Source of the DNA: a virus
Reading direction: 5' to 3' (one strand)
Virus record (IMG/VR): IMGVR_UViG_3300035698_016184
Span: 1 to 63,301 of that record
Length of the DNA stretch: 63,301 nucleotides
A program made the position numbers and the translations under genes. Shown piece after piece: positions 55,111-63,301 of this stretch. The notes under the pieces were generated by a model that had not been told where the DNA came from, did not search any database, and saw nothing but the letters and a program-made list of their open reading frames with translations. The stretch's first letter is position 1; every line of letters starts with the position of its first letter.

Positions 55111-55656
55111 GTGAACGAATTAACCTCAATATATAAAGTAATAGAGTGGAGCAAGAGAGACAACGACGACCACTCTGGAGGTGGGTTTTTTGTAGTCCTT
55201 CCTGAAAAATTAGGAAAGAAGTACCCAAAGAAAGACAACGACGACTCTCTACCACACATTACAGTACTTTACATTGATGATGTCGCAAAGAAGCAAAAGA
55301 AGAAAGGCAAGTACATTGAAGCTATCGAAAAGGTCTGTAAGGAAACAAAACCCTTCAAAGCAAGCTTGGGGAAGAGGAAGACGCTGATCAACCAAGACGG
55401 AGACACGGTTCATTACAGCTCCATTGTCTCTTCCTCGCTAAAGAAGCTTAACGAAAGCATCAAAAAAGAGCTAGACAAGGCTGGGCTTACGTATTCCAAG
55501 CGATTCAAAGAGTTTAAGCCGCACGTTACAATCGAGTACGTTAAAGAGGGTGACGCCCCGAAGTATAAAAATAAAGACTTTAAGGGTTCTTGGGACGTTA
55601 GTTATATATGGCTCTGGGGGTTTGGTGAACCTAGTATATTTTTCTTAGGTGGGTAA
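55111..55656 (+). CDS. 2H phosphoesterase (LigT / Acb1-like fold)
   Basis: Two H-x-T motifs, LPHITVLYI (His 49) and KPHVTIEYV (His 138), spaced ~90 residues apart define the 2H phosphoesterase superfamily, which includes 2',3'-cyclic phosphodiesterases, LigT and T4 Acb1, an anti-CBASS enzyme that cuts cyclic oligonucleotides. The N-terminal GGGFFVVLPEKLG also fits. GTG start 8 bases after the previous stop. Targets could be a host defence messenger, tRNA ends or ADP-ribose compounds. An insertion within the connector/tail operon makes it look like an accessory gene. Confidence 0.78.
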   Translation: MNELTSIYKVIEWSKRDNDDHSGGGFFVVLPEKLGKKYPKKDNDDSLPHITVLYIDDVAKKQKKKGKYIEAIEKVCKETKPFKASLGKRKTLINQDGDTVHYSSIVSSSLKKLNESIKKELDKAGLTYSKRFKEFKPHVTIEYVKEGDAPKYKNKDFKGSWDVSYIWLWGFGEPSIFFLGG

Positions 55657-56129: not shown

Positions 56130-56846
56130 ATGTCTAAAACATCGCTGCTATTGGCAGCTTTCCTTTTCAGTATCCTGGTTCCAAGTTGCCGTCCCGTCCC
56201 CTCTCCTGAAGTAACTCCCGCAAAGTACAGTAGCGAAGGGTTCCACCGGAGTACAGTTAAAATATACATAAAGACGACCACGGGTTATGGCACGGTCTCG
56301 GCTTCCGGCTTTGCAGTCGATGAATATCGATTTGTCACCGCTGGCCACTTTTGCGAAAACGTCGCACTCGGTATTGACTTGAATGACCTCGGCAACGCCG
56401 TGCGTATAGCTTTCGTTAATGAGCATAACAACATTGAAGAGATTGCAGGCGCCGAAGTTGTTTTCTCGGACGCAGCCATCGATTTGTGCCTGCTGGAGAC
56501 GAGACGTCATAGAGTCCCGCCAGCTACAATTTCTATGGTCCCCTTAGGTATTCATGAAGAAGTTTCGGTCGTTGGTGCCCCTTTAGGACTATTTCCTGTA
56601 ACGTCTCCTGGGCGTGTAGTTTATGCGTCTACTGTAGATTTCCCAATAACAGACTTGAACAGGAGACTTCTCCTGCACGTCTTAGGAACCCACGGTAATT
56701 CAGGAGGCCCGGTATTTAACGCTGCAGGGGAAGTAGTAGGGGTTGTGATGTCGAAGTTCCCCAGTTACGACCATGCACTTTTCTGCGTAACAGCAGGGAA
56801 TCTCGTTTCGTTCTTAACGGCAGATCCAACCTACGATGGCAAATAA
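56130..56846 (+). CDS. Trypsin-like serine protease lipoprotein
   Basis: The N-terminus has a lipoprotein signal peptide (lipobox VPSC). Trypsin/HtrA-like catalytic residues are all present: His in VTAGHFC, Asp in DAAIDLCLL, Ser in THGNSGGPVF. No PDZ domain follows, and length (238 aa) is that of a single protease domain. It should act in the periplasm or at the surface. Wedged between neck and tail-terminator genes with an 11-base overlap to the next gene, so it is transcribed with late structural genes. Confidence 0.8.
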   Translation: MSKTSLLLAAFLFSILVPSCRPVPSPEVTPAKYSSEGFHRSTVKIYIKTTTGYGTVSASGFAVDEYRFVTAGHFCENVALGIDLNDLGNAVRIAFVNEHNNIEEIAGAEVVFSDAAIDLCLLETRRHRVPPATISMVPLGIHEEVSVVGAPLGLFPVTSPGRVVYASTVDFPITDLNRRLLLHVLGTHGNSGGPVFNAAGEVVGVVMSKFPSYDHALFCVTAGNLVSFLTADPTYDGK

Positions 56847-57792: not shown

Positions 57793-60171
57793 ATGGCTCG
57801 AAGTTTTGTATCCCCCGGCGTATTCACTAAAGAAACAGACGCATCTTTTTTAAGTTCTGGTGTGAGCGCAATCGGCGCAGCACTACTCGGAACTGCAACT
57901 AAGGGTCCTGCTTTTGTCCCTGTCACTGTTAGTTCTTACTCAGAGTACGTTGAAGTATTCGGAGATTTAGATACCGACCACATTATGGGCTACGCAGCCC
58001 GTGCGTACCTTAAGAATTCCGGCGTCGCAAACGTTGTTCGAGTTTTAGGTCCCGCAGGGCGAACTGTCAACGGCGCCGCTGTTACTCCTGGCTACTCTGC
58101 AGATAGAGTCCAAGCGATCACTGCGTTTACCGGCGTAACTGGTTCCATCCTGGCTATGCTTGAAGTTACCGGCAGCAGTGATATCATCGTTACTGATTTG
58201 GCAGGTGATGAATTTACCTTTCAACTATCAAGCTCAGCCGGGTTCGCCGTCGATACGACGGTTTCTTTCCAGACTAGTTCTGATTCTTACATTAAAAAGG
58301 TTCTGAACACTGACCCTACACAGTTTTCTGAACTTGGGTATTACGTTCGAGACGTTTATGATTACGCTTACAAGTTCCATCAAGCTGGCTCTGCGGGGTA
58401 TAGTTCTGCATCCTTTGATGGAGTTTCAAATTTTCAATTCGGTTTCAATTCAGGCTCAACGCCCTGGATCCAGTCTCAGCTTTTTGGTGGAGCTACTGAA
58501 TATGATTTGATAAAAATTCACACTTTAGGTCATGGAGATGTGGAAAATGGCCGATTTAAAATTTCGGTAGCAAACGTGAAACCCTCAGCCTCCCCCTCCG
58601 TTTCTGATTTTGGTCGTTTTGATCTTGAAATTCGTTCTTTTGGCGACACCGATAAAAGGAAAAGTGTCGTAGAGTCATTTACGAACCTCTCGTTTGACCC
58701 GGCTGATCCTGGTTACATTTGTCGAGCTGTTGGAGATCAATTCTTAACGTACGACACAGATCGAACAAAGATGGTACTCCACGGCGATTATTCAAATCGT
58801 TCAAAGCTTATTCGAGTTGAACTTGCAACAGGTTCTTTCCCTGGCGCTGCATTGCCGTGGGGTTTCAGAGGCCTTGCGAAACCTGTACTAAACATCACCG
58901 GCGGCCTTGGTGAAATAATGCCAAGTGGAGTTGCAGACCTTTCTTTGGTTGCTGACTTGCTAGATAAAGAAACTCAAGGCGAAGCAAAGGTCAACATCTA
59001 TTGGGGAATGGAAACAGTCCTCTCTGGAAATGTGGCTGGAAGATTTTCAAAATATTCAACGATGACAGGCGCCGACGCAGATTTCTCACTGAAAAACGTT
59101 TCTGGCTCTGCATTAAGTAACTTACTTTATAGCGCAAGTAATCCTAGCGACAACTATAAATCGCCTGGCGAAACGACAACATCTACGACCCTTGACCCAA
59201 CTCTGGCTAAATTTACGATCCCTATAGCTTTTGGTTTTGATGGTTTCGACCGTCGGATTGAAAAGCCATTAGAGAACGAAACACAGCTTGTAACTGTAAG
59301 CCAAATAGGCACACAGGCCCTCCGTCAAGCGGTAGAGATAATTTCAGATCCTGATTTTATCGATATCAACCTCTTGGCCGTCCCTGGTGTTTATGCAAGC
59401 AAGGTCGTCGACTTCACAATTGACAAGGTCGAAGGTCGAGCCGACGCATTTTATGTCGCCGACGTCACAGGTTCTACTGTTGCCGGAATCGTTCAAGAAG
59501 TTAAGGGTCGAGGTTTCGATTCTAACTACACCGGAGTTTACTACCCGCCAGTCAAAGTCTTTGATGACGTAAATAACGTAGCTATTCAATTGCCTGCTTC
59601 TGTTCCTGCAATCGGAACCATCGCATTCAATGATAGAGTTTCTCACCCTTGGTTCGCTCCTGCTGGATTGAATCGTGGAGGCCTAAATAGAGATAGTATC
59701 GGATTTGATGTCACCTCTATCGTAGATCAACTTAATCAGACTGAGCGTGACACGTTATACGAAAATCGTATCAACCCAATCGCTAGGTTCCCTGACGTTC
59801 CTCAGGGTGTTGTTTGGGGACAGAAGACGCTGCAGTTGAAGGCCTCGGCCCTTGACCGAATTAACGTTCGTCGTTTGATGATTCGAGCTAAGAAACTCGT
59901 AGCTTCAGCCGTTAAGTTCTTGGTCTTCGAAGCTAATGACAATACGACTCAAACACGATTCCGTCAATTAGTTAATCCTATATTGGCTGACATCCAGCAA
60001 AAGCAGGGCCTCACCAGGTTCTTTGTTCAGATGGATGAGTCAACTAATCCTCCGGAACTTGTTGACCGCAACATCATGGCAGGAAAGATCTTCTTGGTTC
60101 CTACACGAACTGCTGAATTCATTAATGTCGATTTCGTAATTAGCCCAACCGGAGCTACTTTTAATGAATAG
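57793..60171 (+). CDS. 18: Tail sheath protein (gp18-like)
   Basis: Contractile sheath subunit. The N-terminus SFVSPGVFTKETDAS and AALLGTATKGPAFVPVTVSS are diagnostic of phage sheath proteins. The C-terminal core includes RFPDVPQGVVWGQKTLQ, LDRINVRRLMIRAKK and IMAGKIFLVPTRTAEFINVD, which complete the four-stranded inter-subunit sheet. At 792 aa it is longer than T4 gp18 (659 aa), with extra beta domains in the middle. ATG 57793 is 12 bases after AGGAG. Confidence 0.92.
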   Translation: MARSFVSPGVFTKETDASFLSSGVSAIGAALLGTATKGPAFVPVTVSSYSEYVEVFGDLDTDHIMGYAARAYLKNSGVANVVRVLGPAGRTVNGAAVTPGYSADRVQAITAFTGVTGSILAMLEVTGSSDIIVTDLAGDEFTFQLSSSAGFAVDTTVSFQTSSDSYIKKVLNTDPTQFSELGYYVRDVYDYAYKFHQAGSAGYSSASFDGVSNFQFGFNSGSTPWIQSQLFGGATEYDLIKIHTLGHGDVENGRFKISVANVKPSASPSVSDFGRFDLEIRSFGDTDKRKSVVESFTNLSFDPADPGYICRAVGDQFLTYDTDRTKMVLHGDYSNRSKLIRVELATGSFPGAALPWGFRGLAKPVLNITGGLGEIMPSGVADLSLVADLLDKETQGEAKVNIYWGMETVLSGNVAGRFSKYSTMTGADADFSLKNVSGSALSNLLYSASNPSDNYKSPGETTTSTTLDPTLAKFTIPIAFGFDGFDRRIEKPLENETQLVTVSQIGTQALRQAVEIISDPDFIDINLLAVPGVYASKVVDFTIDKVEGRADAFYVADVTGSTVAGIVQEVKGRGFDSNYTGVYYPPVKVFDDVNNVAIQLPASVPAIGTIAFNDRVSHPWFAPAGLNRGGLNRDSIGFDVTSIVDQLNQTERDTLYENRINPIARFPDVPQGVVWGQKTLQLKASALDRINVRRLMIRAKKLVASAVKFLVFEANDNTTQTRFRQLVNPILADIQQKQGLTRFFVQMDESTNPPELVDRNIMAGKIFLVPTRTAEFINVDFVISPTGATFNE

Positions 60172-60220: not shown

Positions 60221-60709
60221 ATGGCAGAAGTACTTTCCGTTCAGCAATTACTGGCTGACTCTTATGAACCAAAGAGAAAAAATAGGTGGGTAATTGCGAT
60301 CAATGGTATTGACGCATTTACAGCTAAGACCGCTTCACGACCACAGGTAGTTTTTGACGAAACTGTGATTGATTATATCAACCAGAAGCGTTACATCTCC
60401 GGTAAGGGCGCATGGCAGCCGTTATCTCTGTCATTATATGATCCCATCGTACCTTCAGCATCACAGAAAGTGATGGAATGGATTCGACTGAACTGGGAAA
60501 ATGTTACAGGTAGAATGGGTTATGCTCAATTCTACAAGAAGACGATCAACCTAAAAATGCTTGATCCGGTCGGTGCAGTTGTAGAAGACTGGGAACTTCA
60601 GGGCTGCTGGGTACAGGACGCCAACTTCGGTGATCTAGATTATTCGGTTTCTGATTTGGCTGACATATCTTTAGTTTTAAGGTACGACCAAGCCGTACTC
60701 CAGTATTAA
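60221..60709 (+). CDS. 19: Tail tube protein (gp19-like)
   Basis: Typical tube subunit: KRKNRWVIAINGIDAFTAKT near the N-terminus, then SLSLYDPIVPSASQKVMEWI and WELQGCWVQDANFGDLDYS near the end. Length 162 aa is the same as T4 gp19 (163). Located right after sheath, as usual. Confidence 0.93.
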   Translation: MAEVLSVQQLLADSYEPKRKNRWVIAINGIDAFTAKTASRPQVVFDETVIDYINQKRYISGKGAWQPLSLSLYDPIVPSASQKVMEWIRLNWENVTGRMGYAQFYKKTINLKMLDPVGAVVEDWELQGCWVQDANFGDLDYSVSDLADISLVLRYDQAVLQY

Positions 60710-60809
60710 AAGTCTTTGAACCGCTTGATAGTTCCTGTCAGGCTAAATATAATCAACAATACGCTCCACGCCTCTCTTGGAAGCGCACCTCGGAGGGTTA
60801 CTTTTTTAT

Positions 60810-60881
60810 GCCGTAGTAAGTAACGGATACCATCCTGCTCGCGAAGGAGATGAGAGGTTCAAGTCCTTTCCTACGGCACCA
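60810..60881 (+). tRNA. tRNA-like element 1 (noncanonical, CCA encoded)
   Basis: Acceptor strands GCCGTAG / CTACGGC pair perfectly and are followed by A-CCA. The T-loop GGTTCAAGTCC is consensus, with an apparent 6-bp T-stem. The D-arm is short (GTA/TAC) and the anticodon region has only a 4-5 bp stem with an 8-base loop (GCTCGCGA), so the anticodon could be CGC or TCG. Total 72 bases including CCA. It may be a divergent functional tRNA, a frameshift-type tRNA with an enlarged loop, or a decayed copy. Confidence 0.5.
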
Positions 60882-60889
60882 ACATGTAT

Positions 60890-60982
60890 CCCGCTCGTAC
60901 TCGTTGGCAGTACAGCTTTTGCGACAGTGGACTTGGCCTCCCACATCGTTTAGCTCGCCTGGTTCGAATCCAGGGGGCGGGT
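60890..60982 (+). tRNA. tRNA-like element 2 (noncanonical, long middle region, anticodon TGG candidate)
   Basis: Acceptor CCCGCTC / GGGCGGG and T-arm CCTGG-TTCGAAT-CCAGG are canonical; a D-arm TACT/AGTA with GG in its loop is plausible. Between D- and T-arm lie ~44 bases that fold as one extended stem: AGCT/AGCT, GCGA/TCGT, GTGG/CCAC, topped by a loop containing CTTGGCC (TGG, Pro, in anticodon-loop context). No CCA is encoded. Length 93 bases. Confidence 0.45.
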
Positions 60983-61264: not shown

Positions 61265-62131
61265 ATGAGTGACTCACGCCAAAGTGAAAACGATCAAACG
61301 TTTGGAGCCCCTCAGGCTCCCGTAGAAGCTGCGCCAGCTCCAAACCCTAACGTTGCCCCAGCCGAGTATCAAGTACCTGCAGAGGTGGTCCCCCTGCCTT
61401 CTCAGGGCCTTCTATACCCCCAGGGACACCCCCTATGTAACGAGAAGACGCTTGACATCAAGTGTATGACGGCGAAAGAAGAAGATATATTAATGTCTCA
61501 TGCTTTGATCAAGAATGGTACAGCCATCACGAAGCTTCTAGAATCCTGCATCTTGAATAAGTCAGTAAGCGCTAAAGACCTTCTTACGGGAGACAGGGAT
61601 GCACTGCTGGTGGCAATCAGGTTATCAGGATACGGCGCCAACTATAAAGCTAACATTACTTGTCCGGCCTGCGATGAATCGTTTGAAAACGAATTTGACC
61701 TCAATAGACTTCCGATCAAGCCTCTAGGAGCTGTTCCGGCCCAACCGAACACAAACCTCTTCACCTTCCAGCTACCTAAGACAGGGATGTCGGTCCATTT
61801 TCGATTGCTCACCGGCGCCATCGCCGATGAGATGGAGAAAGAAAAGAAAGCCAAGAAGAAAGCGAAGCTTCTCAACCGCACAGGGAGCGTCGTAACAACC
61901 CGGCTAACTTATGCTATTGTCGCTTTAGATGGAGACCGAGACGAAGGTAAGATTTCGAGGTTTGTCCGCCAAATGCCCGCCGCCGACTCACAAGCTTTAC
62001 GTGCTTATATCGATAAAATCGATCCAGGCGTTGAAATGAAACAAGAAGTTACCTGTCCGCACTGCGACACTGAAAGTGAGGTAACTGTCCCTCTGGGACT
62101 TACGTTTTTTTGGCCTAACGGGGCAGTCTAG
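61265..62131 (+). CDS. T4 baseplate-hub/tail-chaperone family protein (gp26/gp51-like)
   Basis: A Pro/Ala-rich N-terminus (residues 1-50) is followed by a domain with VPLPSQGLLYPQGHPL and KEEDILMSHALIKNGTAITK, hallmarks of the T4 baseplate (gp26) family. Two CxxC pairs, ITCPACDESF and VTCPHCDTES, suggest a zinc ribbon split by a helical insertion. It lies upstream of the probable tape-measure gene, where tail assembly chaperones sit. Near its end is the run ACG-TTT-TTT-TGG; a +1 shift there would enter the downstream frame. Confidence 0.75.
   Translation: MSDSRQSENDQTFGAPQAPVEAAPAPNPNVAPAEYQVPAEVVPLPSQGLLYPQGHPLCNEKTLDIKCMTAKEEDILMSHALIKNGTAITKLLESCILNKSVSAKDLLTGDRDALLVAIRLSGYGANYKANITCPACDESFENEFDLNRLPIKPLGAVPAQPNTNLFTFQLPKTGMSVHFRLLTGAIADEMEKEKKAKKKAKLLNRTGSVVTTRLTYAIVALDGDRDEGKISRFVRQMPAADSQALRAYIDKIDPGVEMKQEVTCPHCDTESEVTVPLGLTFFWPNGAV
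62105..62111 (+). other. T7 homopolymer: candidate programmed frameshift site
   Basis: Seven T residues, read ACG-TTT-TTT-TGG in the upstream frame, lie 20 bases before that gene's stop. Shifting +1 (or -2) continues as GLTGQSRENVFLEEIFALM into the downstream frame, which lacks a well-placed start. Details are in the findings. Confidence 0.5.
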
Positions 62132-62165
62132 AGAGAACGTCTTTCTTGAGGAAATCTTTGCTTTA

Positions 62166-62429
62166 ATGTATGCTTTCGGGGAAACCTGGGATTCAGCACA
62201 TAAAATTGCAATACCTTATCGCAAATGGCTTATTATGCGATATAATAAACAAAAAGAAGCTGAAAATAAAGCTCAGAACGGTGAATCGCCTGGCTCAGAC
62301 ACTTCTAAGCCTATGAGTAAATCAGAGCGTATGAAGATGATCAGCCAGCATCAGCAAGCAGGAACTACAACAGTTAAAGATAGAGCTTCTCCTGGGGATT
62401 TTATGACGTCTCAAAGGAACAGTACTTGA
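62166..62429 (+). CDS. Second tail-chaperone-like frame, 87 aa (probably reached by frameshift)
   Basis: The frame encodes FALMYAFGETWDSAHKIAIP followed by YRKWLIMRYNKQKE, a pattern like the C-terminal extension of tail assembly chaperones (GT-type), and ends in a disordered tail. ATG 62166 is the first start, but the nearest GAGGA is 15 bases away. The coding pattern continues upstream through ENVFLEEI to the T7 run at 62105. The product is therefore probably made as a fusion to the 61265 protein, with or without internal initiation. Confidence 0.6.
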   Translation: MYAFGETWDSAHKIAIPYRKWLIMRYNKQKEAENKAQNGESPGSDTSKPMSKSERMKMISQHQQAGTTTVKDRASPGDFMTSQRNST

Positions 62430-62863: not shown

Positions 62864-63301
62864 GTGGCTGACAACATCAAACCAGAAGATCTCCAAGACC
62901 TCACGTCTTCACTGAGCGCAATGGCGCAAAAATTAGCCGAAGTGTCAGACAGGATAGGCGGCACTACCTCAGAGATGGGCGCCTGGAACGATATCCTTGA
63001 AGAAGCAGCACGCACAATAGACGACCTGCCCAAGGGCATATCAAACGCCAACGATCTTTGGGCGGCGATGACCAAGGAAGCGAAGGTACTCGAAAAAGTC
63101 GAAAGCCAAATAAGCGACATCGCAAAGAACAGGCTACAAAAGACCTTCCAGTCTCAGGTTGACTTGTTGGAGTCACGAAATTCTTCATCAGAGGATTTCA
63201 AGAAACTCTTAGAGCTTCAGAGTAAAGCCGAACAAGGCATCAACGCTACGATTTCCGACCGCCTAAAGCTAGCTAGGCAGTCTTTATCTTCTGAGAAAGA
63301 A
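62864..63301 (+). CDS. Probable tape-measure/tail-core protein, 5' part (open at window end)
   Basis: GTG 62864 opens a frame that stays open for 146 codons to the window end. The sequence is helical with repeated charged heptads (KPEDLQDLTSSLSAMAQKLA, EKVESQISDIAKNRLQKTFQ), as in N-termini of tape-measure proteins. Position after the tube and chaperone-like genes supports this. GGAG (62847-62850) is 6 bases before an out-of-frame ATG (62857) that opens only MISG-stop, whose TGA overlaps GTG-GCT-GAC. The protein is truncated here by the window, not by mutation. Confidence 0.6.
   Translation, partial: MADNIKPEDLQDLTSSLSAMAQKLAEVSDRIGGTTSEMGAWNDILEEAARTIDDLPKGISNANDLWAAMTKEAKVLEKVESQISDIAKNRLQKTFQSQVDLLESRNSSSEDFKKLLELQSKAEQGINATISDRLKLARQSLSSEKE

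What the first reader, a model, noticed from the sequence alone, without database searches (positions are those of the whole stretch)
62040..62429. Candidate programmed +1 (or -2) frameshift at a T7 run linking two tail-chaperone-like frames
Seen: the 61265 gene contains TTTTTTT at 62105-62111, read ACG-TTT-TTT-TGG, 20 bases before its stop. The downstream frame is +1 relative to it and has no well-placed start, yet its coding pattern (ENVFLEEIFALM) continues upstream to the run. Known: tailed phages commonly make a G/GT-type chaperone fusion by frameshifting just before the tape-measure gene, usually -1, sometimes -2 or +1. T4-type phages are not generally noted for it. Inferred: the run is the slip site.
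Basis: partly seen in the sequence, partly recalled or inferred. Interest (0 to 1): 0.75.

Follow-up and report, generated by a model that had tools for sequence, protein, structure and literature searches.

The report
Frameshifted tail chaperone gene in phage
A phage gene ends in a short run of T's at which some ribosomes very probably skip one base, so that one gene gives a short and a long tail-building helper protein; the same signal recurs in many distant phages related to T4, which itself uses two separate gene copies instead.

Summary
Confirmed and extended. Gene 61265-62131 is a T4 gp26-type 'baseplate hub' protein (PF12322). It carries T7 at 62105-62111, read ACG TTT TTT TGG CCT, and the +1 frame stays open from the run to 62429. 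Among 65 relatives under 80% identical, 63 keep a T-rich site (47 exactly TTT TTT TGG CCT) followed by a +1 frame encoding a conserved helical domain; that domain is under purifying selection and often lacks any start codon. The two exceptions lost the site and gave the domain its own ATG. Variants such as TTTCTTTGG and TTCTTTTGG fit a +1 ribosomal shift, not -2 or polymerase slippage. The domain matches the C-terminus of T4 gp51, itself a gp26 paralogue: so gp26 corresponds to the short (G) and gp51 to the long (GT) tail assembly chaperone. Cyanophages and several jumbo phages show the same layout with a -1 heptamer, T TTT TTC. T4 gp26/gp51 as chaperones made without frameshifting is already published (Vladimirov 2022, not readable here). 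What looks new is the widespread +1 site and the switching between +1, -1, split and duplicated solutions. No frameshift product was observed; efficiency and stimulator are unknown.

The parts
61265..62131 (+). Short chaperone 'G': T4 gp26-like, annotated family name 'baseplate hub' (288 aa)
   Evidence: PF12322 E=1.6e-21, phrog_150 E=6.4e-24; AlphaFold2 pLDDT 90
62105..62116 (+). Shift site TTT TTT TGG CCT: P-site TTT re-pairs one base forward on TTT, the next codon read is GGC
   Evidence: 47 of 65 non-redundant relatives identical; 63 of 65 T-rich in the same phase
62112..62429 (+). +1-frame 'T' domain (G-L-T-G-Q-S-R-E-N-V...), helical hairpin, first ATG only at 62166
   Evidence: T domain frame pN/pS median 0.36 against 1.29 and 1.57 in the other frames; helices 6-24, 36-59; hhalign to T4 gp51 C-terminus and relatives prob 95.8%
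61265..62429 (+). Predicted long product 'GT' (387 aa, ...PLGLTFFGLTGQSRENV...)
   Evidence: Translation with one +1 step at the run; not observed experimentally
62129..62131 (+). Stop codon TAG of the short product
60221..60709 (+). Tail tube protein (gp19-like), upstream context
   Evidence: PF06841 1.3e-6, phrog_4542 9.8e-28
57793..60171 (+). Tail sheath protein, upstream context
   Evidence: phrog_23 1.6e-68
62864..63301 (+). Start of a coiled-coil-like ORF running off the window, at the tape-measure position
   Evidence: Only a weak hit to tape measure phrog_167 (E=0.0064); position as in immuto and SP-15 relatives

Best explanation
The 61265 gene makes two tail assembly chaperones from one message. 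Most ribosomes stop at 62131 and give the short protein (G, T4 gp26-like). A fraction slip forward one base at TTT TTT TGG, with Phe-tRNA re-pairing on the overlapping TTT, and read the +1 frame, giving a 387-residue G-T fusion equivalent to T4 gp51. By analogy with lambda gpG/gpGT, many G and few GT coat the tape-measure protein and recruit tail tube subunits, and leave before the tail is finished. Shown by comparison: site, phase, lack of a start, selection on the T frame, homology of T to the gp51 C-terminus. Inferred: that the shift happens, its efficiency and the assembly role.
For: T-rich site and +1 frame in 63 of 65 non-redundant relatives, 47 exactly TTT TTT TGG CCT. TTT at 100 of 102 Phe codons of FF sites against 77% background (binomial p 2e-9); CCT at 64 of 65 against 34%, the latter expected if Leu (CTN) is also read in +1. 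T frame pN/pS 0.36 against 1.29 and 1.57. 71 of 115 T frames have no ATG/GTG/TTG in their first 28 codons. The two relatives without the site (L196, L202) have T in another frame with an ATG just after the G stop. T4 gp26 and gp51 are both PF12322; only gp51 covers the T end of phrog_150. T domain against T4 gp51 C-terminus plus -1-type T domains: hhalign prob 95.8%, E 7.6e-9. Best PDB fold match of G is the HK97 tail assembly chaperone 2ob9, weak (E 0.48, prob 0.69).
Against: No fusion product or frameshift rate was measured. No clear stimulator: downstream 70-nt folding z averages -0.77 over the set and is +1.1 in the window, and SD-like sequences are not at the classical RF2 spacing. Background tests treat related phages as independent, so the p-values are too small. 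The PDB fold match is not significant by E-value. The tape-measure gene itself is only weakly recognised here.
Confidence: 0.88

Rival explanations
1. -2 ribosomal shift at the T7 run (as in phage Mu), giving LTFFFGLTGQS.
For: In the window alone, a -2 slip on seven Ts also pairs well and reaches the same frame.
Against: TTT CTT TGG (7 of 65), TTC TTT TGG (2) and TTT CTA TGG (1) do not allow a well-paired -2 slip but allow +1.
Confidence: 0.06
2. Transcriptional slippage on the T run adds or drops U in the mRNA.
For: The window and most relatives have seven Ts.
Against: Relatives with the run broken (TTTCTTTGG, TTTCTATGG, TTCTTTTGG) keep the layout; seven Ts is short for slippage (general knowledge).
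Confidence: 0.03
3. T is a separate small protein started by re-initiation or an internal start (62166 ATG, with GAGG 12 bases upstream).
For: An ATG exists at 62166; two relatives (L196, L202) do have a separate ATG; cyanophages carry an ATG two bases after the G stop.
Against: 71 of 115 T frames have no start in the first 28 codons; starting at 62166 removes most of predicted helix 1; it does not explain the conserved shift site nor the open frame up to it.
Confidence: 0.05
4. Sequencing error in the homopolymer splits one continuous gene.
For: Homopolymers are error-prone (general knowledge); no sequence evidence here.
Against: The same split appears in more than 100 distinct contigs and in finished named phages, with non-homopolymer variants.
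Confidence: 0.01

Closest known systems
Lambda gpG/gpGT-type tail assembly chaperone frameshift (HK97, P2, Mu and others; review PMC5009743)
   Same: Two overlapping frames between tail tube and tape measure; a shift just before the first stop gives a short and a long form; fold of G weakly matches HK97 chaperone 2ob9.
   Different: Lambda-type shifts are mostly -1 at heptamers; here +1 at TTT TTT TGG. No sequence relation was seen between the proteins.
T4 gp26 and gp51 (hub assembly chaperones; identified as tail assembly chaperones by Vladimirov et al. 2022, Virology 566:9-15, known here only by its title and from PMC10885494)
   Same: G is PF12322 like both; T matches the gp51 C-terminal part.
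   Different: T4 carries a short gene and a separate long paralogue, no frameshift; here one gene with a shift.
RF2 (prfB) +1 frameshift at CUU UGA
   Same: +1 slip of a P-site tRNA onto UUU; immuto-type relatives read CTT TGG.
   Different: A-site is a sense codon (TGG), not a stop; no conserved SD at the RF2 spacing.
Halorubrum myovirus HSTV-2 tail chaperone, 'very likely +1' (PMC5009743)
   Same: A +1 shift in a tail chaperone pair of a myovirus.
   Different: Archaeal host; sequence not compared here.

Membership tests
PF12322 T4_baseplate / phrog_150 (gp26-gp51 family) | Sequence match above the curated threshold | tested here: met
   77.5 bits against cutoff 24.5; phrog_150 E 6.4e-24
G/GT tail assembly chaperone frameshift pair | Second frame overlaps the first, lies out of frame, and has no proper start | tested here: met
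G/GT tail assembly chaperone frameshift pair | Conserved shift-prone sequence shortly before the first stop | tested here: met
   63 of 65 relatives
G/GT tail assembly chaperone frameshift pair | Located between major tail tube gene and tape-measure gene | tested here: met
   Tube upstream in the window; annotated tape measure downstream in immuto and LIS04; tape measure of the window itself only weakly matched
G/GT tail assembly chaperone frameshift pair | Fold of known tail assembly chaperones | tested here: inconclusive
   HK97 chaperone 2ob9 is the top of 350,542 chains but E 0.48
G/GT tail assembly chaperone frameshift pair | Both forms made, bound to tape measure, absent from virion | not testable with these tools
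   Needs infected cells
Canonical -1 heptamer frameshift | X XXY YYZ in phase leading to an open -1 frame that carries T | tested here: not met
   In the window the -1 frame meets TAA right after the run (TTG GCC TAA); T lies in +1

The most novel reading that the evidence does not exclude
The gp26/gp51 chaperone junction has been solved in at least four ways among T4-related phages: a +1 shift at TTT TTT TGG, a -1 shift at T TTT TTC, a split gene with its own start, and in T4 two duplicated genes; the +1 solution is the standard one in a large uncultured clade and works at a sense codon without an obvious stimulator.
Probability: 0.6. Interest if true: 0.72.

Novelty: new variant of a known kind. 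Interest (0 to 1): 0.6.

Why it matters
A standard review states that the G-T tail frameshift is conserved in long-tailed phages 'except T4' (PMC5009743). The comparison suggests that T4 is an exception within its own extended family: relatives make the two forms by shifting, T4 by two paralogous genes. It also gives a large natural set of +1 sites at a sense codon, with built-in losses, for studying how forward frameshifting works without a stop codon, and it corrects annotation: the T part is often missed or called a tiny hypothetical gene.

Tried and rejected
-2 shift and transcriptional slippage: rejected on broken-run variants. Sequencing error: rejected on relatives. RNA structure downstream: no consistent signal. 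RF2-like SD stimulator: SD-like peaks lie at about -34 to -28 and -13 to -9 from the first TTT, partly from coding, not the RF2 spacing. tblastn of the T domain alone in named phages: no match, so T homology was tested by profiles. Solved-structure sequence search of G and of T4 gp51: nothing. Literature: ten searches of an open-access library found no report of a frameshift at this junction, but the most relevant papers (Vladimirov 2022, Xu 2004) are not held.

Full report
Observation. The window is an IMG/VR virus record. Gene 61265-62131 reads ...GGA CTT ACG TTT TTT TGG CCT AAC GGG GCA GTC TAG, with T7 at 62105-62111. The +1 frame is open from the run to 62429. The frame's first ATG, 62166, is well inside the conserved part. 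TTTTTTTGGCCT is unique in the window.

What the gene is. It matches PF12322 (T4_baseplate, E 1.6e-21) and phrog_150 'baseplate hub', next to tail sheath (57793) and tail tube (60221) genes. T4 gp26 and gp51 both match PF12322 (E 8.8e-64 and 3.9e-52); gp26 covers phrog_150 positions 14-235 and gp51 13-280 of 282. So they are paralogues, and gp51 is gp26 plus a C-terminal extension. In the tree they pair with modest support (88/61).

Relatives, +1 group. At under 80% identity 65 remain: TTT TTT TGG CCT 47, TTT CTT TGG CCT 7, CTT TTT TGG CCT 2, TTC TTT TGG CCT 2, TTT TTT TAC CCT 2, TTT CTA TGG CCT 1, TTT CTT TAC CCT 1, TTT CTA TTC CCT 1, and two outliers. In all non-outliers the +1 frame continues; three run off the contig. 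The outliers L196 and L202 have TTC TTG TAT CCT and TTC CTT TGG CCA; there the +1 frame is closed and T lies in the other frame behind its own ATG right after the G stop. In the tree they nest beside immuto, which reads as a natural loss.

Selection. At FF sites 100 of 102 Phe codons are TTT (background 77%), and 64 of 65 Pro codons are CCT (background 34%). The CCT bias is what a Leu codon (CTN) in the +1 frame would impose. In the T frame, beyond the G stop, median pN/pS is 0.36 over 827 pairs, against 1.29 and 1.57 in the other two frames. 71 of 115 T frames hold no ATG, GTG or TTG in the first 28 codons.

Direction. Each variant contains a codon that re-pairs well one base forward (TTT-T, TTT-C or CTT-T, the last as in RF2). 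A -2 slip pairs badly on TTT CTT TGG, TTC TTT TGG and TTT CTA TGG, and the broken runs do not favour polymerase slippage. The exact slip codon (first or second) is not fixed: TTC TTT TGG needs the second, TTT CTA TGG the first. This pairing argument is inference from the codons.

Wider family. SP-15, Listeria LIS04, Streptococcus GXN1 and Streptomyces BRock and LuckySocke also have the next domain in +1, with TTT followed by T or C near the G stop. RaK2, Atu_ph07, Vibrio 2.275, UB, Phosso and PA5oct carry T TTT TTC, XacN1 and phiM12 T TTT TTT, with the domain in -1. Cyanophages S-PM2 and P-SSM2 show T TTT TTC with annotated gp51 in the -1 frame, and the heptamer is kept in 42 of 42 distinct contexts of P-SSM2 relatives although the codon before it varies (AGT, AAT, GCT, TCT); an ATG two bases after the stop is also always present, so separate initiation is not excluded there. 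The +1 T domains match the T4 gp51 C-terminus plus -1 T domains by hhalign (prob 95.8%, E 7.6e-9; without the jumbo phages prob 87.4%, E 3.7e-6).

Structure. G is modelled with pLDDT 90; its best PDB match is HK97 tail assembly chaperone 2ob9, with YqbN 3klu lower down, but E is 0.48, so this is a lead. BFVD matches are PF12322-type baseplate hub proteins, SP-15 among the first. T is a helical hairpin, helix 1 at residues 6-24 of the +1 frame.

Known and new. PMC5009743 states that G-T frameshifting is conserved 'except T4'. PMC3004832 lists gp26 and gp51 as hub assembly chaperones. PMC10885494 cites Vladimirov et al. 2022 for T4-like phages carrying a short and a long fused chaperone gene instead of frameshifting. 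The chaperone identity of gp26/gp51 is therefore not new. I found no report of the +1 site or of the switching of solutions, but could not read that paper.

Limits. No product was observed, no stimulator was identified, and related loci are not independent tests.

Noticed in passing
window 60809-60881: tRNA-like element: 8-bp closing stem, T-arm-like hairpin and a 3' ACCA (fold z -2.5), missed by ARAGORN and Rfam; a second T-arm-like stretch lies near 60950-60978.
   Followed up: partly
window 60762-60798: Sub-threshold match to abiF RNA (27.1 bits, gathering 37), between tube and chaperone genes.
   Followed up: no
window 56130-56846: ORF in the tail module with trypsin-like protease motifs (TAGH, GNSGGP) and a lipoprotein-like N-terminus. 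Read by eye only.
   Followed up: no
window 55111-55656: ORF with two H-x-T motifs (HITVLY, HVTIEY) as in 2H phosphoesterases; could be an anti-CBASS-like enzyme. Read by eye only.
   Followed up: no
L013 3339-3449: In Flavobacterium phage immuto the T domain is annotated only as a short hypothetical protein from an internal ATG, an example of the missed long product.
   Followed up: yes
L022 (Alishewanella phage) around 3157: PF12322 gene with an open +1 frame but no clear T-run; shift mechanism unclear.
   Followed up: no
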